From positions 250,548-314,547 of the forward strand of contig NZ_KI519517.1 of assembly GCF_000482865.1 (NCBI RefSeq): DNA of 64,000 nt, read 5' to 3'. The position numbers and the translations under genes were made by a program. A model generated the notes under the pieces. That model searched no databases, had not been told where the DNA came from, and was given only the letters and a program-made list of their open reading frames with translations. This stretch comes from Actinokineospora inagensis DSM 44258 (GTDB taxonomy: Bacteria > Actinomycetota > Actinomycetes > Mycobacteriales > Pseudonocardiaceae). Of this stretch, positions 5,663 through 64,000 are shown one piece after another (position 1 is the first letter of the stretch; every line of letters begins with the position of its first letter).

Positions 5663-6898
5663 TTACAGGGCTCCCGGCGGGACGACCTCCACCTCAGCCT
5701 CGATCGCCGCCACCACCGGCTCAACCGGACGTCGGCGGAGTCGAGGAACGACGGCGACGCAGACCAGCACCGCCGCGCAGCCGTAGGCCACCGCCATGGT
5801 CAGGCTCATCGACAGTGGGCTGGTTCCGCTCAACGACACCAGCGGCGCCACGATGGGGCCGACCGCGAACGAAGACGTTCCCAGCAGGGCCGCCGCTGTG
5901 CCCGCTCGTTCGCCGTGGTCGGCCAGGGCGAGGGCGGAGCCGTTGGACTGGGTTCCGCCGCCCACCAGCATTTGCAGGGCCAACGCGATCAGCAGGACTA
6001 CCAGTCCGGCGTGGAACAGCACCGACACGCACATCGCCACGGCGGCTGACGCGGTGATCACTGTGCCGACCGTGTACATCCGGGCAGGCCCGACCCGGCG
6101 GACCACGACGCGGTTGATTTGGGCGCCGACCACCGACATCACGGCGTTCGCGGCGAAGCAGACGCTGAACCACTGGGGGGACAGGCCGAAGCTGTCCTGC
6201 AGGACGAAGCTGATCGACGCGAGGTAGGTGAAGAAGGCGACCCCGCCGAACGCGCCGACGACGAGGAAGCTCAGGAACAGCCGGTCGCGCAGGACCGCCC
6301 GGAACTGGCCCGTGCCGCCGCCGCTGGTGTGTCGGGCTGATGGGGGCAGGCTTTCCGGCAGCGATGTCATCGCGAGCACGAACAGTCCGGCGCCGATGGC
6401 GGCGAGGACGGCGAAGATGCCGCGCCAGCCGATCACGGCGGCCAACTGGCCGCCGACGACCGGGGCCACGATCGGGGCGAGCGCCCCGACCGTGGTCAGC
6501 ATCGCCAGCAGCCGGACCAGTTCCACGCCCTCGGCCAGGTCGCGGGCCACCGCGAGGCAGATCACGATCCCGGCCGAACCGGACAGGCCCTGGAAGAACC
6601 GGGCCGCCAGCAACAGTTCGACCGACGGTGTGACCGCGCAGACCAGGGAGAGCACGGCGAACATGCCCACCCCGATCAGCAGCGGCGTGCGCCGCCCGTA
6701 CCGGTCGCTGAGCGGCCCCACCACCAGTTGACCCAGCGCCAAGCCGAGCATGCAGGCCGACATGGTCGCCTGGGCCAAGCTCTGGCTGGTGCCGAGATCG
6801 GTCGCCAGCCGGGGCAGCGCGGGCATGTACAGGTCCATCGAGATCGGGCCGAACATCTCCAGCAGGCCCAGGACGATGGCGACCCGGCGCAGGCTCAC
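5663..6898 (-). CDS. MFS transporter, Bcr/CflA-type drug exporter
   Basis: 411 residues with about 12 membrane segments and the MFS loop motif GPLSDRYGRR at residues 61-70, plus a DHA1-like first helix (MFGPISMDLYMPALPRLATDL). Bcr/CflA proteins export small drugs and metabolites by proton antiport. The GTG start at 6898 overlaps the stop of the upstream esterase gene (GTGA), making this the last gene of the dehydrogenase-reductase-esterase-esterase operon. It could export the pathway substrate or a toxic intermediate. Confidence 0.88.
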   Translation of the reverse strand: MSLRRVAIVLGLLEMFGPISMDLYMPALPRLATDLGTSQSLAQATMSACMLGLALGQLVVGPLSDRYGRRTPLLIGVGMFAVLSLVCAVTPSVELLLAARFFQGLSGSAGIVICLAVARDLAEGVELVRLLAMLTTVGALAPIVAPVVGGQLAAVIGWRGIFAVLAAIGAGLFVLAMTSLPESLPPSARHTSGGGTGQFRAVLRDRLFLSFLVVGAFGGVAFFTYLASISFVLQDSFGLSPQWFSVCFAANAVMSVVGAQINRVVVRRVGPARMYTVGTVITASAAVAMCVSVLFHAGLVVLLIALALQMLVGGGTQSNGSALALADHGERAGTAAALLGTSSFAVGPIVAPLVSLSGTSPLSMSLTMAVAYGCAAVLVCVAVVPRLRRRPVEPVVAAIEAEVEVVPPGAL

Positions 6899-7908
6899 GT
6901 GTCCGGCAGGATCCGCCGCAGCCACGACAACCGGGTGGCTTCGGCGGACCTGGACACCTCGGCGTCGGGGGAGAAGCCCGCGAAACCGTGGTAGCCGCCC
7001 GCCCAGACGTGCAGTTCGGCCTGGCCGCCGGTGGCCCAGATGCGCAGCGCGTACTCGGTCGCCTCGTCCCGGAAGATCTCCGCGGCGCCGACGTCGATGA
7101 ACGCGGGTGGCAGGTTGGACAGGTCGGTCATCCTGGCCGGGACCTGGTACGGGCCGACCTGGTCGGTGCCGCGCGACTCGCCGAGGATGGCGTCCCAGGC
7201 GCAGTCGTTGTTGTTGCGGTCCCAGGCGCCGCGCAGGTCGTACTGGCGGGTGGACACCGAGGTGTTGCGGTCGTCGAGCATCGGGCACATCAGCATCTGC
7301 CCGGCGATGTGCGGGCCGCCGCGGTCGCGGGCCAGCAGCGACACACCGGCGGACAGGCCGCCGCCCGCGCTCGCCCCGGTGACGATGATCTTCGTCGGGT
7401 CCAGGCCGAGCTCGGCGGCGTGCTCGGACATCCACACCAGACCGGCGTAGCAGTCCTCGACGGCGGCGGGCGCCGGGTGCTCCGGGGCCAGTCGGTACTC
7501 CACCGACACGCCGACCGCGTTGTACCGCAGCACGTCGCCGACCAGCCCGGCGATGCCGAAGTACCGGTTGCCCAGCACCATCCCGCCGCCGTGGATGCAG
7601 TAGAAGCCGGGGGCGTCCACCAGGTCCACGTCGCGCGGCTTGACGATGGTCAGGATGATCTCCGGGGCGCCCTCGGGGCCCGGCACGGTGCGGTCCTCGA
7701 CGGTGACCGGCAGGTCGCCGATCATCACCTCGACCGGCGGGATGATGGTGGCGAAGTGGTCCCGGTTGACCAGGATGGTGTCCTTGCGCAGCGGGATCCG
7801 CTCGACCATGTCCAGGAACCCGGCGAGCCCGGCTTCCAACTGCGGGTCGTAGGGCACCGGCGGGTACTGGCCCGCCACGTAACCCGCGGCGCGGTACGGC
7901 TCGGTCAT
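6895..7908 (-). CDS. Alpha/beta hydrolase, HSL family esterase (second paralogue)
   Basis: 337 residues. It has the oxyanion-hole HGGG at 106-109, nucleophile motif GASAG with Ser180, a downstream DEAT acid and GGYHGF His, the order expected for hormone-sensitive-lipase-type carboxylesterases. It is cytoplasmic, with no signal peptide. It overlaps the upstream paralogue and the downstream MFS gene by 4 bp each. Its closest relative in the window is the upstream gene, with long identical stretches such as VEDCYAGLVWMSEHAAEL, so the pair arose by tandem duplication. It probably hydrolyses an ester or lactone taken up or produced by the pathway. Confidence 0.88.
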   Translation of the reverse strand: MTEPYRAAGYVAGQYPPVPYDPQLEAGLAGFLDMVERIPLRKDTILVNRDHFATIIPPVEVMIGDLPVTVEDRTVPGPEGAPEIILTIVKPRDVDLVDAPGFYCIHGGGMVLGNRYFGIAGLVGDVLRYNAVGVSVEYRLAPEHPAPAAVEDCYAGLVWMSEHAAELGLDPTKIIVTGASAGGGLSAGVSLLARDRGGPHIAGQMLMCPMLDDRNTSVSTRQYDLRGAWDRNNNDCAWDAILGESRGTDQVGPYQVPARMTDLSNLPPAFIDVGAAEIFRDEATEYALRIWATGGQAELHVWAGGYHGFAGFSPDAEVSRSAEATRLSWLRRILPDT

Positions 7909-8918
7909 GCGTTCCCCAATCCGAGCACCCGGCGGAACCACGAGGTGCGGGTGGCCAGCGCGGCCTGGCTGATGTGCCACTCCGGCACGTACATGTCGAA
8001 CCCGTGGAACGCGCCGCTCCACACGTGCAGTTCGGCCTGCCCGCCGGTGGCCCAGATGCCCAGGGCGTACTGGGTGTCCTCGTCGCGGAACGGCTCGGCG
8101 CTGCCCACCTCGATGAACGCGGGCGGCAGGTTGGCCAGGTCCTTGGCCCGGGTGGGCGCGGCGTAGATGGAGACATCGTCGGTGCCGACCTTGTCGCCGA
8201 GCAGCGACCGCCAGCCCGCCAGGTTCGCCTCGCGGGTCCAGGTGCCGATGCCCGCGTACTGGTGGCTGCCGACCGTCGTGTTCGTGTCGTCGATCATCGG
8301 GCACAGCAGCAACTGCCCGGCCAGGGCGGGGCCGCCGCGGTCGCGGGCCAGCAGCGCGACCCCGGCGGACAGGCCGCCACCGGCGCTGCCGCCCATGACC
8401 ACGATCCGGCTCGGGTCCACGTTGAGCTCGGCGGCGTGCTCGGACATCCACACCAGACCGGCGTAGCAGTCCTCGACCGGCGCCGGGTCCGGGTGCTCCG
8501 GGGCGAGCCGGTACTCGACGTTGACCGCGACCACGCCCAGCTCCAGCACCAGGGCCAGCAGCCGACCGACGTCCATGTTGCGGTGGCCGACCATCATGCC
8601 GCCGCCGTGGATGTTGTACAGGCCGGGCACCGGCGCGGTCAGGCCGCGCGGGGAGATGATCGTGATCTCCAGGTCCGGCGCGCCCGCGGGACCGGGGATG
8701 CTGCGCTCGACCACGTCGACCGGCGCGTCGCCGACCTGCACGGACGCGGGCGGGAACATCGCGGCCATCGCCTGCCGGGCACCGGGGATGGTCTCGGGGG
8801 TGAACGGCGGCGCGTCCTTGGGCACCAGGTACTCGAGCGCGGGCTCGATCTCCGGGTCGAACGGCACGGGAGTGGGACGGGACACTGCGGACTCCTCGCT
8901 GGTGGGAACGGACATCAC
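7905..8918 (-). CDS. Alpha/beta hydrolase, HSL family esterase (first paralogue)
   Basis: 337 residues from a GTG at 8918 that overlaps the reductase stop; an ATG one codon later is equally possible. HGGG lies at 104-107 and GGSAG with Ser178; the acid (RDEDTQYA) and His (GAFHGFD) follow. Same family and fold as the next gene downstream, with strongly conserved lid and nucleophile regions. Two tandem HSL esterases beside an alcohol dehydrogenase and an aldo/keto reductase suggest hydrolysis of an ester followed by redox steps on the released alcohol or acid. Confidence 0.88.
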   Translation of the reverse strand: MMSVPTSEESAVSRPTPVPFDPEIEPALEYLVPKDAPPFTPETIPGARQAMAAMFPPASVQVGDAPVDVVERSIPGPAGAPDLEITIISPRGLTAPVPGLYNIHGGGMMVGHRNMDVGRLLALVLELGVVAVNVEYRLAPEHPDPAPVEDCYAGLVWMSEHAAELNVDPSRIVVMGGSAGGGLSAGVALLARDRGGPALAGQLLLCPMIDDTNTTVGSHQYAGIGTWTREANLAGWRSLLGDKVGTDDVSIYAAPTRAKDLANLPPAFIEVGSAEPFRDEDTQYALGIWATGGQAELHVWSGAFHGFDMYVPEWHISQAALATRTSWFRRVLGLGNA

Positions 8919-55148: not shown

Positions 55149-56300
55149 GTGCACGAGACCGGGCGGGTGCTCAGAGCAGCGCGGGAAAACGCCGGACTCA
55201 GCCTGGCAACGTTCGCCGCCCGCGTTCACTACGGCAAGTCGACCCTGAGCATGGTGGAGACTGGGCAACGAACAGCCACCCCGGAGTTGGTAGCCGCATA
55301 CGAGCGAACGCTCGGCGTTCAAGGGTTGGGTGACGACGTGAATCGACGAGAACTCCTCGCGGCGACAGCCGCGCTGCTGGCCGGAACGGCGATCTCGGAC
55401 CCCGCCGCCCGACTCCTGGACGGGCTGTCCAGTGCCGGGCACACAGGTCAAGTCGGCCGCTCGGAGGTGGAGGCCATCCGACATGCGGCCGCCGTCTACA
55501 CCGCGATGGACCTCAAGTATGGCGGCGCGGTCACCGCCGATCTGTCCCACAGCGCTCTGAGGTGGGCTGTTGGGCTCTTGGACGCGCCGATGAGGGACGA
55601 CATACGGGTCGAACTCCACGCTGCGGTGGGTTCGCTCGCGGATCGGACGGCCTGGATGCATTTCGACGCGGGGCGGGGCCACTCCGCACGTACGCTCTCG
55701 ACTCTTGCGCTGCGCACGGCTGACGGAGGCGCTGACCCGGACTTGCGTGCCCACGTCTTGCTCGACATCGCCATGCAGGTCGGTGAAGTCTTCCCCGGAG
55801 AAGCTGCCAAACTGATTGACTCGGCTCTCGCGGACCGCCGGGTGTGCTCATTGGAACGCGCGAACCTGCACGCGGAGATGGGCCGACACTCGGCGAAGGC
55901 AGGTGACAAGCAGAAGGCGCTGCAGCACATCCGCCGGGCCGAGCTGTTGGCCTCGTCCGGTGGCGATGCCCCGATGTGGGCCGGATTCCTCACGGTGAAT
56001 CACCTCGATGCCGTCATCACGCGTTCGCTGGCCGCCGCGGGTGAGCACGCGGAGGCAATCCGGCGGTTCGAGAACCTGTTGCCCCGGGTAGGTGACGATC
56101 GGCTCCGTGGTCGCGCTGGGTGGATGATCGATCTTGCCGATGTGTACACCGATACCGGAGAGCTGGAGCGGGCGGCCACCCTGGCTCGGCAGGCGGACGG
56201 CGCGCTCCAGGAGGTTCGATCAACGCGGAAGGCGGCCAAGCTGGCCGCACTGAAATCACGCGTGACGCAAGCAAGGCACGGACAGTCACGGCAGAGTTGA
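55149..56300 (+). CDS. XRE-family regulator with TPR-like C-terminal domain
   Basis: 383 residues from a GTG after GAGGAG. Helix-turn-helix at about 5-57 (LRAARENAGLSLATFAARVHYGKSTLSMVETGQRTATPEL), then repeated helical hairpins (LSTLALRTADGGADPDLRAHVLLDIAMQVGE, SLERANLHAEMGRHSAKAGDKQKALQHIRRAE, EHAEAIRRFENLLPRVGDDRLRGRAGWMIDLADVY) like TPR units. Such proteins are abundant in Streptomyces and Pseudonocardiaceae, often near conflict or signalling genes. Ligand and targets unknown. Its region from 55323 on is duplicated immediately downstream. Confidence 0.85.
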   Translation: MHETGRVLRAARENAGLSLATFAARVHYGKSTLSMVETGQRTATPELVAAYERTLGVQGLGDDVNRRELLAATAALLAGTAISDPAARLLDGLSSAGHTGQVGRSEVEAIRHAAAVYTAMDLKYGGAVTADLSHSALRWAVGLLDAPMRDDIRVELHAAVGSLADRTAWMHFDAGRGHSARTLSTLALRTADGGADPDLRAHVLLDIAMQVGEVFPGEAAKLIDSALADRRVCSLERANLHAEMGRHSAKAGDKQKALQHIRRAELLASSGGDAPMWAGFLTVNHLDAVITRSLAAAGEHAEAIRRFENLLPRVGDDRLRGRAGWMIDLADVYTDTGELERAATLARQADGALQEVRSTRKAAKLAALKSRVTQARHGQSRQS

Positions 56301-56319
56301 CAGCCGCTCACGCGTTGAC

Positions 56320-57262
56320 GGGTTGGGTGATGACGTGAACCGACGGGAACTGCTCGCGGTGACGGCCTCGCTGCTGGCCGGACCAGCGATGTCAGACCCA
56401 GCCGCTCGTCTGTTGGACGGGCTCTCGACCACCGGACACACGGGTCAAGTCGGCCGGACCGAGCTGGAAGCCGTCCAGCAGACCACGGCCGTCTACACGG
56501 CCATGGACCTCAAGTTCGGCGGCGTGGTCACCGCCGATCTTTCCCGCAGCGCTCTCAACTGGGCCGTTGGACTCCTGGACGCCCCCATGCGGGACGACAC
56601 ACGGGCGGCACTGCACTCGGCGGTGGGGGCACTCGCGGATCGGACCGCGTGGACGCACCTTGACGCGGGCAAGACCCACTCCGCGCGCAAGCTCTCGACC
56701 CTGGCCCTGAAGACCGCCGACAGTGGCGCTGATCCGGACATCCGTGCCCACGTGCTGTTGAACATCGCCACGCAGGTTGGTGAGACTTTTCCGCGTGGTG
56801 CGGTGAATCTGGTCGGCTCTGCCTTGTCCGATCGCCGGGTGTGTTCGCTGGAACGCGCGAACCTGCACGCGGCGATGGGTCGGCACCTCGCGAAGTCGGG
56901 TGACAGGCAGCAGGCCCTGCACCACATCCGCAAGGCGGAGGCGTTGGCCGCGACCGGCGGGGAGACACCCGAGTGGGCCGGGTTCCTCACGCAGAACCAC
57001 CTGAACTCGATCATCGCGCAGTCGCTGGCCACCGCGGGTGAGCACACGGAGGCGATCCGGCGGTTTGAGGACCTCCTGCCGCGAATCGGCGATGACCGCA
57101 GGCGCGGCCGCGCTGGGCGGATGATCGACCTCGCCGAGTTGTACGCGACCACGGGCGACCTGGACCGGGCGAAGTTCCTCACGCAGCGGGCGGGCGGGGC
57201 CTTGCGTGAGGTGGGGTCGGCGCGGACCACGGCCAGATTGGCCGCGCTGAGGTCGCGTGTGG
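56320..57262 (+). repeat. Tandem duplicate of 55323-56265
   Basis: About 940 bp copied with an offset of 997 bp; the boundary GGGTTGGGTGA is shared. Divergence is moderate, so the event is not very recent. Confidence 0.85.
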
Positions 57263-57270
57263 AGGCGTGA
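56323..57270 (+). CDS. TPR-like protein, duplicate of the XRE regulator lacking the DNA-binding domain
   Basis: 315 residues from a TTG at 56323 (or a GTG at 56335). Aligns end to end with residues 59-377 of the preceding protein but has no helix-turn-helix. The frame is intact across the entire length and codon use is normal, so selection has probably maintained it. It could form heterodimers with, or titrate, its full-length neighbour. Starts 22 bp after the stop of the first copy, probably co-transcribed. Confidence 0.75.
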   Translation: MGDDVNRRELLAVTASLLAGPAMSDPAARLLDGLSTTGHTGQVGRTELEAVQQTTAVYTAMDLKFGGVVTADLSRSALNWAVGLLDAPMRDDTRAALHSAVGALADRTAWTHLDAGKTHSARKLSTLALKTADSGADPDIRAHVLLNIATQVGETFPRGAVNLVGSALSDRRVCSLERANLHAAMGRHLAKSGDRQQALHHIRKAEALAATGGETPEWAGFLTQNHLNSIIAQSLATAGEHTEAIRRFEDLLPRIGDDRRRGRAGRMIDLAELYATTGDLDRAKFLTQRAGGALREVGSARTTARLAALRSRVEA

Positions 57271-60784: not shown

Positions 60785-61081
60785 ATGAGGATGGACCTGG
60801 TCGAGCTGGTCGGGCACCTGCGCGAACAGTTGGCCGACGCGGTCGAGGCGGGGGCCGGGGCGGACCTGAGGTTCGAGGTCGGCGCGGTCGAGGTCGAGGT
60901 GTCGGTCGTGGTCGAGCGCGAGGCCAAGGCGGGCGGCAAGGCGAAGTTCTGGGTGGTCGAGGCGGGGACCGACGCGAAGCTCGCGCACCACCACACCCAG
61001 CGGATCAAGCTGTCGTTGACGCCGACCCGCGGCCAGGAGTCGGTCGCGATCGCGGGTGTCGAGGCCGGTGCCGAACGCTGA
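60785..61081 (+). CDS. Trypsin-co-occurring domain 2 (trypco2) protein
   Basis: 98 residues. N-terminal helix MDLVELVGHLREQLADAVEAG then a strand-rich part (DLRFEVGAVEVEVSVVVERE, KAKFWVV, RIKLSLTP), the trypco2 layout. Such small proteins are encoded beside trypsin-like-protease-fused NTPases in actinobacterial conflict systems, probably as regulators or adaptors of the protease. Overlaps the trypsin-STAND gene by 14 bp, so translation is likely coupled. Divergent from the USP operon. Confidence 0.8.
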   Translation: MRMDLVELVGHLREQLADAVEAGAGADLRFEVGAVEVEVSVVVEREAKAGGKAKFWVVEAGTDAKLAHHHTQRIKLSLTPTRGQESVAIAGVEAGAER

Positions 61082-64000
61082 CCGGGCGCGGGTCGCCGAG
61101 CTGATCGTCACCGGACCCACCGGCGCGTGGCGTGGTTCCGGCTACCGGGTCACGACCGGGTCCGTGCTGACCGCCGCGCACGTCGTGCGGGGCGCGACGA
61201 GGGTCGAGGTCCGGTTCCTGCCCGACCTGCCCGGCTCGTGGTCGGTCCGCGCGCGGGTGGCGTGGACGCACGATGGGACCGACCTCGCGGTCCTCGCCAT
61301 CGATGCTCCGGACACCGTCCCGAACGTGGAGTTCGGCGTGGTCGACTGGCGGCGGGCCGCCGTCCTCGCCGCGCACGCCGTGGGGTTCCCCCGGTGGAAA
61401 CTGCGCACCGACGACGACGGCAGCAAGTTCCGCGATGCCCACCAGGCCACCGGCACCGTGGCCACCCTGTCCCACTGGCGAAGCGACACCCTGGAGTTCA
61501 CCGTCCCCGTTCCGCCGGAGGCCGTGGCGGTGGGGTCACCGTGGGAGGGTATGTCCGGCGCCGCCGTGTGGGTGGACGGCGCGATCGTCGGTGTGCTCGC
61601 CAGGCACCACCACAGCGACGGCCCGGGTCGACTCACCGCGAGCAGGGTGAACTACCTGGGTGGCGCCCAATCTTTGGTCGGCTACCCGGACGTGCCGCGC
61701 GACGTGGTCCCGCAGGAGCCCGCGCAGGTGGTGAGCGCCGCTTATCGCGACGAGTTGAAGACGATCGCGCCCGTTCAACTGTTCGACCGCGTGGACGAAC
61801 TCGACGAGTTGGTCCGGTTCTGCGCGGGACCCGACCCGTACCAGTGGTGGCAGGCGGGACCGTGGGCGGGCAAGTCCGCGCTGCTGTCCTGGTTCGCGCT
61901 CAACCCACCCGCGGGCGTGGACGTCGTGTCGTTCTTCATCACCAGCCGCTACGTGGGCCAGTCCGACAGCGACGCCTTCCTCGACGCCGTGCTGGAGCAG
62001 TTGGCGGCCCTCGTCGGTGAGTCCCCGAGCGCGGTGCTGCACGCGCGCGCCGGACAACTGCGCCGGTTGATCGAGGCCGCCGCCGCCCGCGCCGAGTCGA
62101 CCGGTCGACGGTTGGTGCTGGTCGTGGACGGTCTGGACGAGGACACCAGCGGCGCCGCGCGCAAACCCAGCATCGCCGGTCTTCTCCCCGAGTCTCCGCC
62201 GCCTGGCCTGCGGGTGTTGGTCGCCAGCCGTCCTTACCCGAGTCTCCCCAAAGACGTCCGTGCGAGCCACCCGCTGCACGCGCTGGTCCCGATCCAACTG
62301 TCGGTCGCCGAGGCCGCCGACGACCTCGCCCGCGCCGCCAACGACGAACTGGACACCCTGTTCGAGGGCCCCAACCGCGATGTCCTGGGTCTCATCACCG
62401 CATCCGGCGGTGGCCTCACCCTGGATGACCTGCACGAACTCACCCACCTGCTCCCGTACGACCTGGAGCGCCTGTTCACCGGCCTGTTCGGCCGCAGCAT
62501 CCGCGGCCGGGTGTCCAGCCTGGGGCAGGCCCCCGTCCACGTGTACCTGTTCGCCCACGAAACCCTCCGGGTCACCGCGGAGGCCCTGTTCGGCCCGGTG
62601 GTCGCCGACTTCCGCGCCCAACTCCACGACTGGGCGGACGGTTACCGCGCCCGGGGCTGGCCCGCCGAGACCCCGGTCTACCTCCTGCGCGGCTACTCCC
62701 GCATGCTCGCCGCCGCGAACGACCGCTCCCGCTTGCTCGCCCTGGTCACCGACGCGCGCCGCCGCGACCGCATGCTCGACCACTCCGGCGGCGACGCCCT
62801 CACCACCGCCGAACTCACCACTGCCGCCACCCGCTTCGCCGACCCGCCCGACCTGGCCGCCCTGCTCGTCATCGCCTACGCCAAGAACACCGTGGTGTAC
62901 CGGAACATCTGGGTCCCCGACCACCTGCCCGCCGTCTGGGAGTCACTGGGCGAACGGGACCGGGCGGTCGCGCTGGCCGAGGGCACCGGCCGGATCGACG
63001 CCTACATCGAGATGATCCGGTCCGCGACGGACGAGGACCGGGCCACCGCGCTGTTCCAGCACGCCCTCGCCATCAGCGCCGGGTTCGACCAGGGCGCTAG
63101 TCAGGCCACCCGCTTGCTGGAAGCCCTGAGCGTGGCGCTGAACGCCGGTGTGCGGCTATCGATGTCCGAAGTGGACAATCTGCTCGACCGGGCCGAACGG
63201 TTGGTCGAGAACGATCGGGACCCAGCTCAGGTCGCTTGTGGACTGGCCCGGCTCGCCCGCGACGCCGCACGGCTGGGCTGGACTGCGAGGGTCCGACCGC
63301 TGATCGAACGCTTGGACCACAGTAGACTCCGGACCCGGGAATTCCTCTATCTGGCTGAGGCTCTATGGCGTGCCGGACATCAAGACGCCGCCCGCGTTTG
63401 GGCCGACCAGGCGCGCGACGAGGTGGAGTTGGTCCCGCTGCTCGACACCGCGACGGTGATGGGGGACGCCGCCGACGCGATCATCGCTCGCATCATGGGC
63501 AAGGCCGCGGAGGACCCAGCGGAGTACGTCGAGTTGTGTGAGGCCTTGATCCGGGCGGGCCGACCCGAACTGACCGCCCGAATGCGGATCAGGGTCGGGT
63601 CGTTGGAGCGCGAGATACCGACCATCAACCTCACCCTCCGCGCCATGGTCGAGTCCAGCCCGCAACGTGCCCGCGAACTCGCCACCCAGGCCGAGCAAGC
63701 GGCCCGCTCCACCACTGACCCCAAGACCAGGATCAACCTGCTCATCACCGTCGGTCGTCTCGTCACCGCGCCTGAACTCGCTTTCCGCCTTGCCGATTCC
63801 GCATCACGGATGCTGAGCCAGGTTGATGTGTACGCGTACGACCGCATCACCATCCTCGCCCAACTCTCGACGCTCTTGACCAAAGCGGGCCGAGACGGCA
63901 CCGCGTTCGCGGAAGAAGCCTGCCAGGGCCTGCGGGACGACGATTACCACAACGCTTTACGGCTGGCAGGCGCATTCCAAGCGGGGGGCGATCTGGCCCG
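61068..64000 (+). CDS. Trypsin-STAND NTPase with TPR-like repeats, C-terminus outside window
   Basis: At least 977 residues in one open frame, cut by the right edge. Starts at GTG 61068 (GTG 61056 possible). Trypsin-like domain (about 10-205) with His38 (TAAHVV), Asp72 (GTDLAVLAI) and Ser163 (GMSGAAVW); STAND/NACHT-like NTPase with Walker A GPWAGKSAL (264-272) and Walker B LVLVVDGLDED (349-359), ASRPYP sensor region, then winged-helix-like and long helical repeats from about residue 600. Together with trypco2 this is the architecture of NTP-dependent conflict systems where ligand sensing by repeats triggers proteolysis. Cytoplasmic. Confidence 0.9.
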   Translation, partial: MPNADRARVAELIVTGPTGAWRGSGYRVTTGSVLTAAHVVRGATRVEVRFLPDLPGSWSVRARVAWTHDGTDLAVLAIDAPDTVPNVEFGVVDWRRAAVLAAHAVGFPRWKLRTDDDGSKFRDAHQATGTVATLSHWRSDTLEFTVPVPPEAVAVGSPWEGMSGAAVWVDGAIVGVLARHHHSDGPGRLTASRVNYLGGAQSLVGYPDVPRDVVPQEPAQVVSAAYRDELKTIAPVQLFDRVDELDELVRFCAGPDPYQWWQAGPWAGKSALLSWFALNPPAGVDVVSFFITSRYVGQSDSDAFLDAVLEQLAALVGESPSAVLHARAGQLRRLIEAAAARAESTGRRLVLVVDGLDEDTSGAARKPSIAGLLPESPPPGLRVLVASRPYPSLPKDVRASHPLHALVPIQLSVAEAADDLARAANDELDTLFEGPNRDVLGLITASGGGLTLDDLHELTHLLPYDLERLFTGLFGRSIRGRVSSLGQAPVHVYLFAHETLRVTAEALFGPVVADFRAQLHDWADGYRARGWPAETPVYLLRGYSRMLAAANDRSRLLALVTDARRRDRMLDHSGGDALTTAELTTAATRFADPPDLAALLVIAYAKNTVVYRNIWVPDHLPAVWESLGERDRAVALAEGTGRIDAYIEMIRSATDEDRATALFQHALAISAGFDQGASQATRLLEALSVALNAGVRLSMSEVDNLLDRAERLVENDRDPAQVACGLARLARDAARLGWTARVRPLIERLDHSRLRTREFLYLAEALWRAGHQDAARVWADQARDEVELVPLLDTATVMGDAADAIIARIMGKAAEDPAEYVELCEALIRAGRPELTARMRIRVGSLEREIPTINLTLRAMVESSPQRARELATQAEQAARSTTDPKTRINLLITVGRLVTAPELAFRLADSASRMLSQVDVYAYDRITILAQLSTLLTKAGRDGTAFAEEACQGLRDDDYHNALRLAGAFQAGGDLA

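What the first reader, a model, noticed from the sequence alone, without database searches (positions are those of the whole stretch)
60785..64000. Trypco2 plus trypsin-STAND NTPase: a probable anti-phage or cell-suicide system
The two genes overlap by 14 bp. The large protein has a full trypsin triad (His38, Asp72, Ser163), an intact P-loop NTPase (264-272, Walker B 349-359) and long helical repeats that could sense an invader. Trypco domains are known to mark trypsin-based, NTP-controlled conflict systems in multicellular bacteria, but their targets, triggers and the role of trypco2 are largely uncharacterised. It lies next to stress genes (USP, nitroreductase). This is the best candidate in the window for an undescribed immune mechanism.
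Basis: partly seen in the sequence, partly recalled or inferred. Interest (0 to 1): 0.72.

Follow-up and report, generated by a model that had tools for sequence, protein, structure and literature searches.

The report
Protease-armed NLR-like sensor with Trypco2
An actinomycete carries a two-gene unit in which a protein-cutting enzyme is fused to an ATP-driven sensor resembling animal and plant immune receptors, next to a small partner protein; it is probably a self-destruct alarm against invading phages or plasmids, built from known parts in a little-studied combination.

Summary
A Trypco2 gene (60785-61081) overlaps by 14 bp a gene for a 1229-aa protein that leaves the window but ends cleanly at window-equivalent 64757. 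It has a trypsin domain with His38/Asp72/Ser163, a disordered linker, a NACHT/NPHP3-type NTPase with Walker A and B, and a long alpha solenoid (AlphaFold2 mean pLDDT 80.5). The triad is kept in 30 of 30 aligned proteins, window included. The same pair sits on four actinomycete plasmids. Most likely it is a mobile NLR-like, protease-armed immune or suicide system. New here: in a class-wide sample Trypco2 is followed by a trypsin gene in 24 of 29 loci, but that trypsin is joined to very different switches; Trypco2 and trypsin distances co-vary; the solenoid half diverges to chance level while protease and NTPase stay 38-66% identical. Trypco2-trypsin thus looks like a portable effector cassette, an analogue of the published MBL-nuclease/trypsin module. 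Anti-invader activity, target and the role of Trypco2 are inferred. The neighbouring contractile injection cluster is not a conserved partner. New variant of a known kind.

The parts
60785..61081 (+). Trypco2 gene (98 aa), small alpha+beta partner protein
   Evidence: PF19631 E 2.1e-26; AF2 model: helix 5-22, strands 29-43 and 68-82, low confidence at 47-66
61068..61081 (+). 14-bp overlap of Trypco2 and the protease gene (translational coupling is an inference)
   Evidence: annotated overlaps of 26 bp in L159 and 17 bp in L160, but gaps of 10 and 46 bp in L161 and L169
61068..64000 (+). trypsin-NACHT-solenoid gene, first 977 of 1229 codons; continues to window-equivalent 64757
61092..61646 (+). 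trypsin-like protease domain, aa 9-193, with His38 (61179-61181), Asp72 (61281-61283), Ser163 (61554-61556)
   Evidence: Trypsin_2; triad 30 of 30; strands in the model
61647..61718 (+). disordered linker between protease and NTPase, aa 194-217
   Evidence: pLDDT below 50 at aa 196-221
61719..62552 (+). NACHT/NPHP3_N-type NTPase and following short beta pair, aa 218-495; Walker A aa 263-270 (61854-61877), Walker B region aa 350-359 (62115-62144)
   Evidence: PADLOC STAND_TPR model E 1.9e-93 over aa 229-641
62559..64000 (+). alpha-helical solenoid (presumed sensor), aa 498 onward, ending outside the window
   Evidence: all-helical; aa 641-1229 at shuffle-level identity in six relatives

Best explanation
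It is a two-gene, mobile, NLR-like conflict system. SHOWN by sequence or model: a protein with an intact trypsin-like triad at the front, an intact NACHT-type P-loop and Walker B in the middle and a fast-diverging helical solenoid at the back, encoded in a two-gene operon whose first gene is Trypco2 (opposite-strand genes bound it on both sides). INFERRED: the solenoid holds the switch off until it meets a product or activity of an invader (phage or plasmid); ATP-driven oligomerisation then clusters the trypsin domains on flexible linkers and switches them on; proteolysis of cell proteins stops or kills the cell before the invader spreads. Trypco2 is a dedicated partner of the trypsin domain more than of the switch. 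I think it most likely docks on the protease as a restraining or targeting cofactor, made first and in step with it (about 0.5); next likeliest is that it is the protease's substrate or pro-effector, as the MBL nuclease is in the published trypsin pairs (about 0.3).
For: Domains and motifs; model of aa 1-1200, mean pLDDT 80.5. The NTPase part matches a PADLOC defence-candidate model, STAND_TPR, E 1.9e-93. Best 19-residue Kyte-Doolittle mean is 1.27, so a membrane helix is unlikely. The pair lies on four plasmids, three of Streptomyces and one of Rhodococcus, with unlike neighbours. Trypco2 is followed by trypsin in 24 of 29 loci of a class-wide sample, window included. Trypco2 and trypsin distances co-vary over 28 pairs, Mantel r 0.57, p 1e-4; partial correlation 0.51 given the switch, against 0.24 for Trypco2-switch given trypsin. 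The NTPase platform carries other front ends in relatives, TIR-like or HTH-like by eye (HTH_31 in L054 at E 1.4e-4, below cut-off). Trypsin and NTPase segments are 38-66% identical to six relatives, aa 461-640 29-50%, aa 641-1229 21-33%, against about 30% for shuffled sequence in the two relatives so controlled. Sister species G011 keeps only a relic on another contig: fast turnover.
Against: No phage, plasmid or cell-death data exist for it here. The large protein has no match in 50,697 phage records. The two copies in G040 keep the triad but have no Trypco2 beside them, so adjacent Trypco2 is not obligatory; in the relatives search other trypsin matches too lie in genomes without any Trypco2 (G001, G016, G025). 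G040 has one orphan Trypco2 elsewhere, but a similar orphan in G239 sits in a genome without a trypsin match to the window's, so orphans do not prove action in trans. On the Trypco2 tree the partners of the window's trypsin group do not form one clade (4 changes). The Mantel tests do not remove shared ancestry or joint transfer, and the switch also correlates (raw r 0.63). The overlap is not general: two of four plasmid pairs have a gap instead. The Trypco2 model is of modest confidence, 67.8.
Confidence: 0.55

Rival explanations
1. Trypco2 is the substrate: a pro-effector or gate that the trypsin domain cuts when the NTPase fires, as with the MBL nuclease upstream of trypsin in Hachiman and AVAST. 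(A branch of the best explanation, differing in the role of Trypco2.)
For: Same gene order, small upstream gene then trypsin fused to varied switches (compare PMC12799240 passages). Co-variation with trypsin. A poorly predicted middle stretch, aa 47-66.
Against: Trypco2 has no recognisable effector domain by Pfam and no PDB sequence match. Two G040 proteins keep the protease triad without adjacent Trypco2.
Confidence: 0.3
2. A selfish exclusion system: plasmids and islands carry it to shut out rival plasmids or phages. (Overlaps the best explanation; differs in who benefits.)
For: Four plasmid copies, one between a mobF relaxase gene and IS elements, one beside integrase genes.
Against: Also found on a 352-kb chromosomal-type contig in the window genome and on large contigs in G040 and G404; whether those lie in mobile elements was not tested.
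Confidence: 0.25
3. It is a regulatory or developmental protease switch (differentiation, programmed cell death), not an anti-invader system.
For: A published link of a contractile injection system to developmental cell death in Streptomyces (PMC10020575, title and start of abstract in a listing); an eCIS cluster is the next-door neighbour.
Against: Patchy: 14 of 61 genomes match, own included; among the 13 others the trypsin and NTPase parts are joined in one gene only in G040 and in the G011 relic. G004 and G014 of the same genus have Trypco2 with other trypsin proteins. Plasmid carriage; sensor half not conserved.
Confidence: 0.15
4. It is an accessory of the neighbouring eCIS cluster, for example its control or suicide arm.
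For: Tail-to-tail overlap with the end of an eCIS cluster with sheath, tube, baseplate, AAA and Pvc16_N genes.
Against: 0 of 7 genomes of the genus with the orthologous eCIS end and 8-9 kb of flank have the pair there (an eighth ends too near its contig edge to tell). The G011 relic lies on another contig than its orthologous eCIS. The plasmid neighbourhoods shown list no eCIS genes.
Confidence: 0.03

Closest known systems
Trypco2-trypsin genes of VMAP/MoxR-vWA ternary conflict systems (Kaur et al. 2020, PMC7159879; outline and passages seen)
   Same: Trypco2 as a neighbour gene of a trypsin-like protease in multicellular bacteria
   Different: No MoxR, vWA or VMAP gene in this operon; the trypsin is fused to a NACHT-type switch with a helical solenoid. 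In the passages seen Trypco is discussed only with VMAPs; the source data were not seen.
Trypsin-fronted STAND NTPases of multicellular bacteria (Kaur et al. 2021, PMC8195603; passages seen)
   Same: Trypsin listed among the front-end domains of NACHT or other STAND proteins, with swapping of fronts
   Different: Those described there have FGS or similar sensors; Trypco2 is not mentioned in the passages seen
MBL nuclease-trypsin module of AVAST (Avs1a), Hachiman, Lamassu, DRT (Tuck et al. 2025, PMC12799240; passages seen)
   Same: Upstream partner gene followed by trypsin fused to the front of unrelated defence switches; modular reuse
   Different: The upstream partner is Trypco2, not an MBL nuclease
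CARD-NLR / LypABC systems (Banks et al. 2026, PMC13236601; passages seen)
   Same: Trypsin-like peptidase plus NLR-like ATPase, lethal when over-produced
   Different: There the protease and the NLR-like ATPase are separate proteins with a CARD, plus a second peptidase; here one protein, no CARD, and Trypco2
bNACHT proteins (Kibby et al. 2023; paper not held; recalled)
   Same: NACHT-type ATPase with a C-terminal sensor and a front-end effector
   Different: Pfam NACHT is below cut-off, NPHP3_N above it; whether a Trypco2-trypsin member was included there is not known to me
PADLOC STAND_TPR (PDLC01173)
   Same: The NTPase region aa 229-641 matches at E 1.9e-93
   Different: That model is described with an Xre-HTH front and TPRs; here trypsin is the front end

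Membership tests
Trypco2-trypsin pair | PF19631 protein encoded directly upstream of a trypsin-like protease | tested here: met
Trypco2-trypsin pair | Protease catalytic triad intact | tested here: met
   H38, D72, S163; 30 of 30 aligned proteins, window included
STAND / NLR-like receptor | Walker A and B of a NACHT-type NTPase followed by a superstructure-forming repeat region | tested here: met
STAND / NLR-like receptor | Ligand-triggered oligomerisation | not testable with these tools
   needs biochemistry
AVAST type 1 (Avs1) / MBL-trypsin module | MBL-fold nuclease gene directly upstream of the trypsin fusion | tested here: not met
   the gene directly upstream is Trypco2, and before it lies a divergent USP gene
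AVAST type 1 (Avs1) / MBL-trypsin module | Avs1 STAND region | tested here: not met
   PADLOC Avs1b's best stretch is only aa 22-177, the trypsin part, E 2.9e-6
VMAP/MoxR-vWA ternary system | MoxR ATPase, vWA protein and VMAP encoded together | tested here: not met
   two-gene operon bounded by opposite-strand genes on both sides: Usp and a zinc-ribbon gene of the eCIS end
CARD-NLR | CARD domain on the protease and a separate NLR-like partner | tested here: not met
   no helical bundle before the trypsin strands, which start at aa 9; the NTPase is in the same protein
Anti-phage defence system | Demonstrated protection against phage | not testable with these tools
   bench test needed

The most novel reading that the evidence does not exclude
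Trypco2-trypsin is a portable proteolytic effector cassette of its own, joined in different actinomycetes to unrelated switches (NACHT, NPHP3-type, NB-ARC, CHAT-AAA-TPR, vWA and nSTAND5-like), in parallel with the MBL-trypsin module, and Trypco2 is the trypsin domain's dedicated partner that sets its activity or target, possibly even in trans. It would be a second, uncharacterised class of immune protease unit in bacteria.
Probability: 0.5. Interest if true: 0.7.

Novelty: new variant of a known kind. Interest (0 to 1): 0.52.

Why it matters
If true, actinomycetes reuse one Trypco2-protease cassette under many NTP-driven sensors, much as animals reuse caspases. What Trypco2 does has been unstated since it was named in 2020, as far as the held library shows, and would become directly testable: join one cassette to different switches and ask whether Trypco2 is the protease's restraint, guide or victim. 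The two-gene plasmid copies are small enough to move into a laboratory strain.

Tried and rejected
eCIS partnership: rejected by synteny, 0 of 7 testable genus members. MBL-nuclease partner: not upstream. Kin in genome contigs by back-translated peptides: 17 stretches matched a pattern, none encoded a relative. Phage records: no match for the large protein. PDB by sequence: none for the Trypco2 profile at E up to 1 or for the large protein at 0.001. Fold comparison never ran because the machine stayed busy, so the fold of Trypco2 is unidentified. Idea that Trypco2 must be adjacent: rejected by G040. Idea that an orphan Trypco2 always has a matching trypsin in trans: one of the two orphans near the window's Trypco2 fits (G040), one does not (G239). 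A phylum-wide draw of 296 genomes with aa 1-640 matched 2, the own genome and G050, the latter only in the NTPase part. Literature: 'Trypco2' is in two papers of the held library; 'trypco' adds only an unrelated trypanosome paper; some searches gave the other papers cited. PADLOC was run on the two proteins only, not on neighbours. My first Trypco2 search of plasmids missed the Trypco2 of NZ_CP114282 at E 0.001; its annotation shows it. Limits of the switch census: Pfam at E up to 0.01; 8 of the 10 nSTAND5 matches are below Pfam's cut-off, as are CHAT in L141 and NPHP3_N in L151. On the tree I labelled L159, L161 and L073 'NPHP3' from their similarity to the window's NTPase; L159 and L161 were not scanned by Pfam, and L073 gave no NPHP3_N match at 0.001.
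Full report
WHAT IS THERE. The window is G000:C2:250548-314547 of a 7.28 Mb genome in 97 contigs, by its relatives an actinomycete (inference). The finding is real. Trypco2 (60785-61081, 98 aa) matches PF19631 at E 2.1e-26. A GTG start at 61068 gives the stated 14-bp overlap with the next gene. That gene is cut only by the window edge; in the genome it ends at window-equivalent 64757 and encodes 1229 aa. Trypsin_2 and NPHP3_N are above Pfam cut-offs, NACHT is below its own. PADLOC's STAND_TPR model covers aa 229-641 at E 1.9e-93.

ANATOMY. AlphaFold2 on aa 1-1200 with an alignment of 28 sequences gave mean pLDDT 80.5, pTM 0.57: a strand-rich trypsin domain (aa 9-193), a disordered linker, an alpha/beta NTPase (218 to about 475), a short beta pair (478-495) and then only helices to the end. 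No stretch looks like a membrane helix (best 19-residue mean 1.27). Trypco2 alone was modelled as one helix and two long strands with an uncertain middle, pLDDT 67.8.

IS THE PROTEASE ALIVE IN RELATIVES? In an alignment of 30 trypsin regions (28 with Trypco2 beside them, window included, and 2 without) all 30 have His, Asp and Ser; three plasmid relatives do too. Kaur et al. [quoted passage not shown] these are not of that sort.

TRYPCO2 FOLLOWS THE TRYPSIN MORE THAN THE SWITCH. A family search over 296 genomes drawn from the class found Trypco2 in 24 genomes, 29 loci, window included. I read all 29. The next gene starts with a trypsin-like domain in 24 of 29; Pfam sees trypsin at E up to 0.01 in 22 of those 24. 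In a 25th, L133, trypsin is there but out of frame and beside unread bases. Four lack it: L137, L147, L150 and L158, whose Trypco2 is truncated next to what looks like a transposase. Behind the 24 trypsins Pfam shows nSTAND5 in 10 (8 below cut-off), NACHT 4, NB-ARC 2, NPHP3_N 2 (window; L151 below cut-off, with WD40), CHAT-AAA-TPR 1, weak CHAT 1, vWA 1, and no NTPase in 3: L153 (371 aa), L155 (cut by the contig edge), L156 (633 aa). Trypco2 and trypsin distances correlate over 28 pairs, these 24 plus 4 found through the trypsin or NTPase (Mantel r 0.57, p 1e-4; 0.43, p 1e-4 after dropping two near copies). With one local-alignment measure the raw correlations are 0.72 Trypco2-trypsin, 0.63 Trypco2-switch, 0.71 trypsin-switch; partial 0.51 against 0.24. 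So the switch carries signal too; the tie to trypsin is stronger, not exclusive.

TREES. On a trypsin tree of 34 rows, the window, three plasmid copies, both G040 copies, two NACHT fusions (L142, L146) and one CHAT-AAA-TPR fusion (L044) form one set with support 99/97. Over 30 labelled rows the eight switch labels need 10 changes where 7 is the minimum; shuffled labels need 15.6, none of 200 as few. Labels are thus clustered, with some exchange. The G040 copies, without adjacent Trypco2, nest among Trypco2-bearing rows, so loss of adjacency is likely. G040 has one Trypco2 elsewhere, not followed by trypsin. On a Trypco2 tree of 36 rows the seven partners of the window's trypsin set need 4 changes, so they are not one clade; they lie together with the G040 orphan, L150 and L155, and a tree holding the seven with the G040 orphan is not rejected (p-AU 0.354).

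FRONT KEPT, SENSOR FREE. Against six full relatives, trypsin (aa 8-200) is 38-60% and the NTPase (225-460) 41-66% identical, aa 461-640 29-50%, but aa 641-940 and 941-1229 fall to 21-33%; shuffled sequence gives about 30% in the two relatives so tested. Relatives of the NTPase carry other fronts: TIR-like or HTH-like sequence, or little (by eye, except HTH_31 in L054 below cut-off). Both are what one expects of interchangeable receptors.

MOBILITY AND CONTEXT. Among 22 plasmid records matching aa 1-640, four have trypsin and NTPase in one match, and all four have a trypco2 gene just upstream: Streptomyces sp. NBC_01724 and NBC_00989, S. aurantiacus and Rhodococcus pyridinivorans. The Rhodococcus pair sits between mobF and IS elements, the S. 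aurantiacus pair beside integrase genes. The PLSDB gene tables are incomplete, so I claim no more than that no common third gene is listed. In the window genome the pair abuts a contractile injection cluster (sheath, tube, baseplate J, gp25, Pvc16_N), but 0 of 7 genus members with that cluster end and enough flank have the pair there. Sister genome G011 holds a relic on another contig: 322 bp of the window, from within Trypco2 to trypsin aa 86, are replaced by 45 bp, His38 and Asp72 are gone, and the reading frame changes in Trypco2 and in the NTPase. The combination is rare: of 61 genomes (own included) 14 match, and trypsin and NTPase are joined only in the own genome, G040 and the relic. 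Of 394 class genomes 16 match at E 1e-60, own included and with two candidates scored per genome; besides the window only G404's match spans the trypsin part, while G403's begins at aa 154 but its gene has no trypsin-like front.

HOW IT PROBABLY WORKS. See Best explanation. The NLR-like logic follows established knowledge of STAND proteins and the published trypsin-armed systems (passages). The target is unknown. I favour Trypco2 as cofactor or restraint over substrate because it has no recognised effector domain, is encoded first, and can be missing beside proteases with intact triads; this is a lean, not a result.

NOVELTY. Each part is known. In the held library Trypco2 is in two papers; in the passages seen it is tied to VMAP and DGR loci. 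Trypsin fronts on STAND proteins are in print as well. The breadth of switches behind one Trypco2-trypsin unit I did not see described there, but source data and papers not held were not read. Hence new variant of a known kind.

Noticed in passing
right of window 64000 (L009:6302-14351, L059): A contractile injection system (eCIS) cluster, minus strand, tail to tail with the finding; a second related baseplate J gene lies at G000:C1:25433-27556, and 15 of 16 genus genomes match this baseplate protein at E 1e-40.
   Followed up: partly
window 55149-57270: Tandem relatives: an HTH/TPR regulator-like protein (383 aa) and beside it a similar protein lacking the HTH (315 aa).
   Followed up: no
L048 about 6000-8571 (G001:C7): Two divergent trypsin genes back to back, at least one with an nSTAND5-like NTPase (just below cut-off), with no Trypco2 match in that genome.
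   Followed up: no
G040:C1:3172937-3173170 (L166) and G239:C1:2696076-2696309 (L150): Orphan Trypco2 genes close to the window's type without a trypsin next door; in G040 the following frame looks like a secreted NlpC/P60-type protein (by eye).
   Followed up: partly
G000:C11:140879 (L054) and C12:56996 (L055): Two more genes with the same NTPase platform in the window's own genome, with an HTH-like front (L054) or almost no front (L055).
   Followed up: partly
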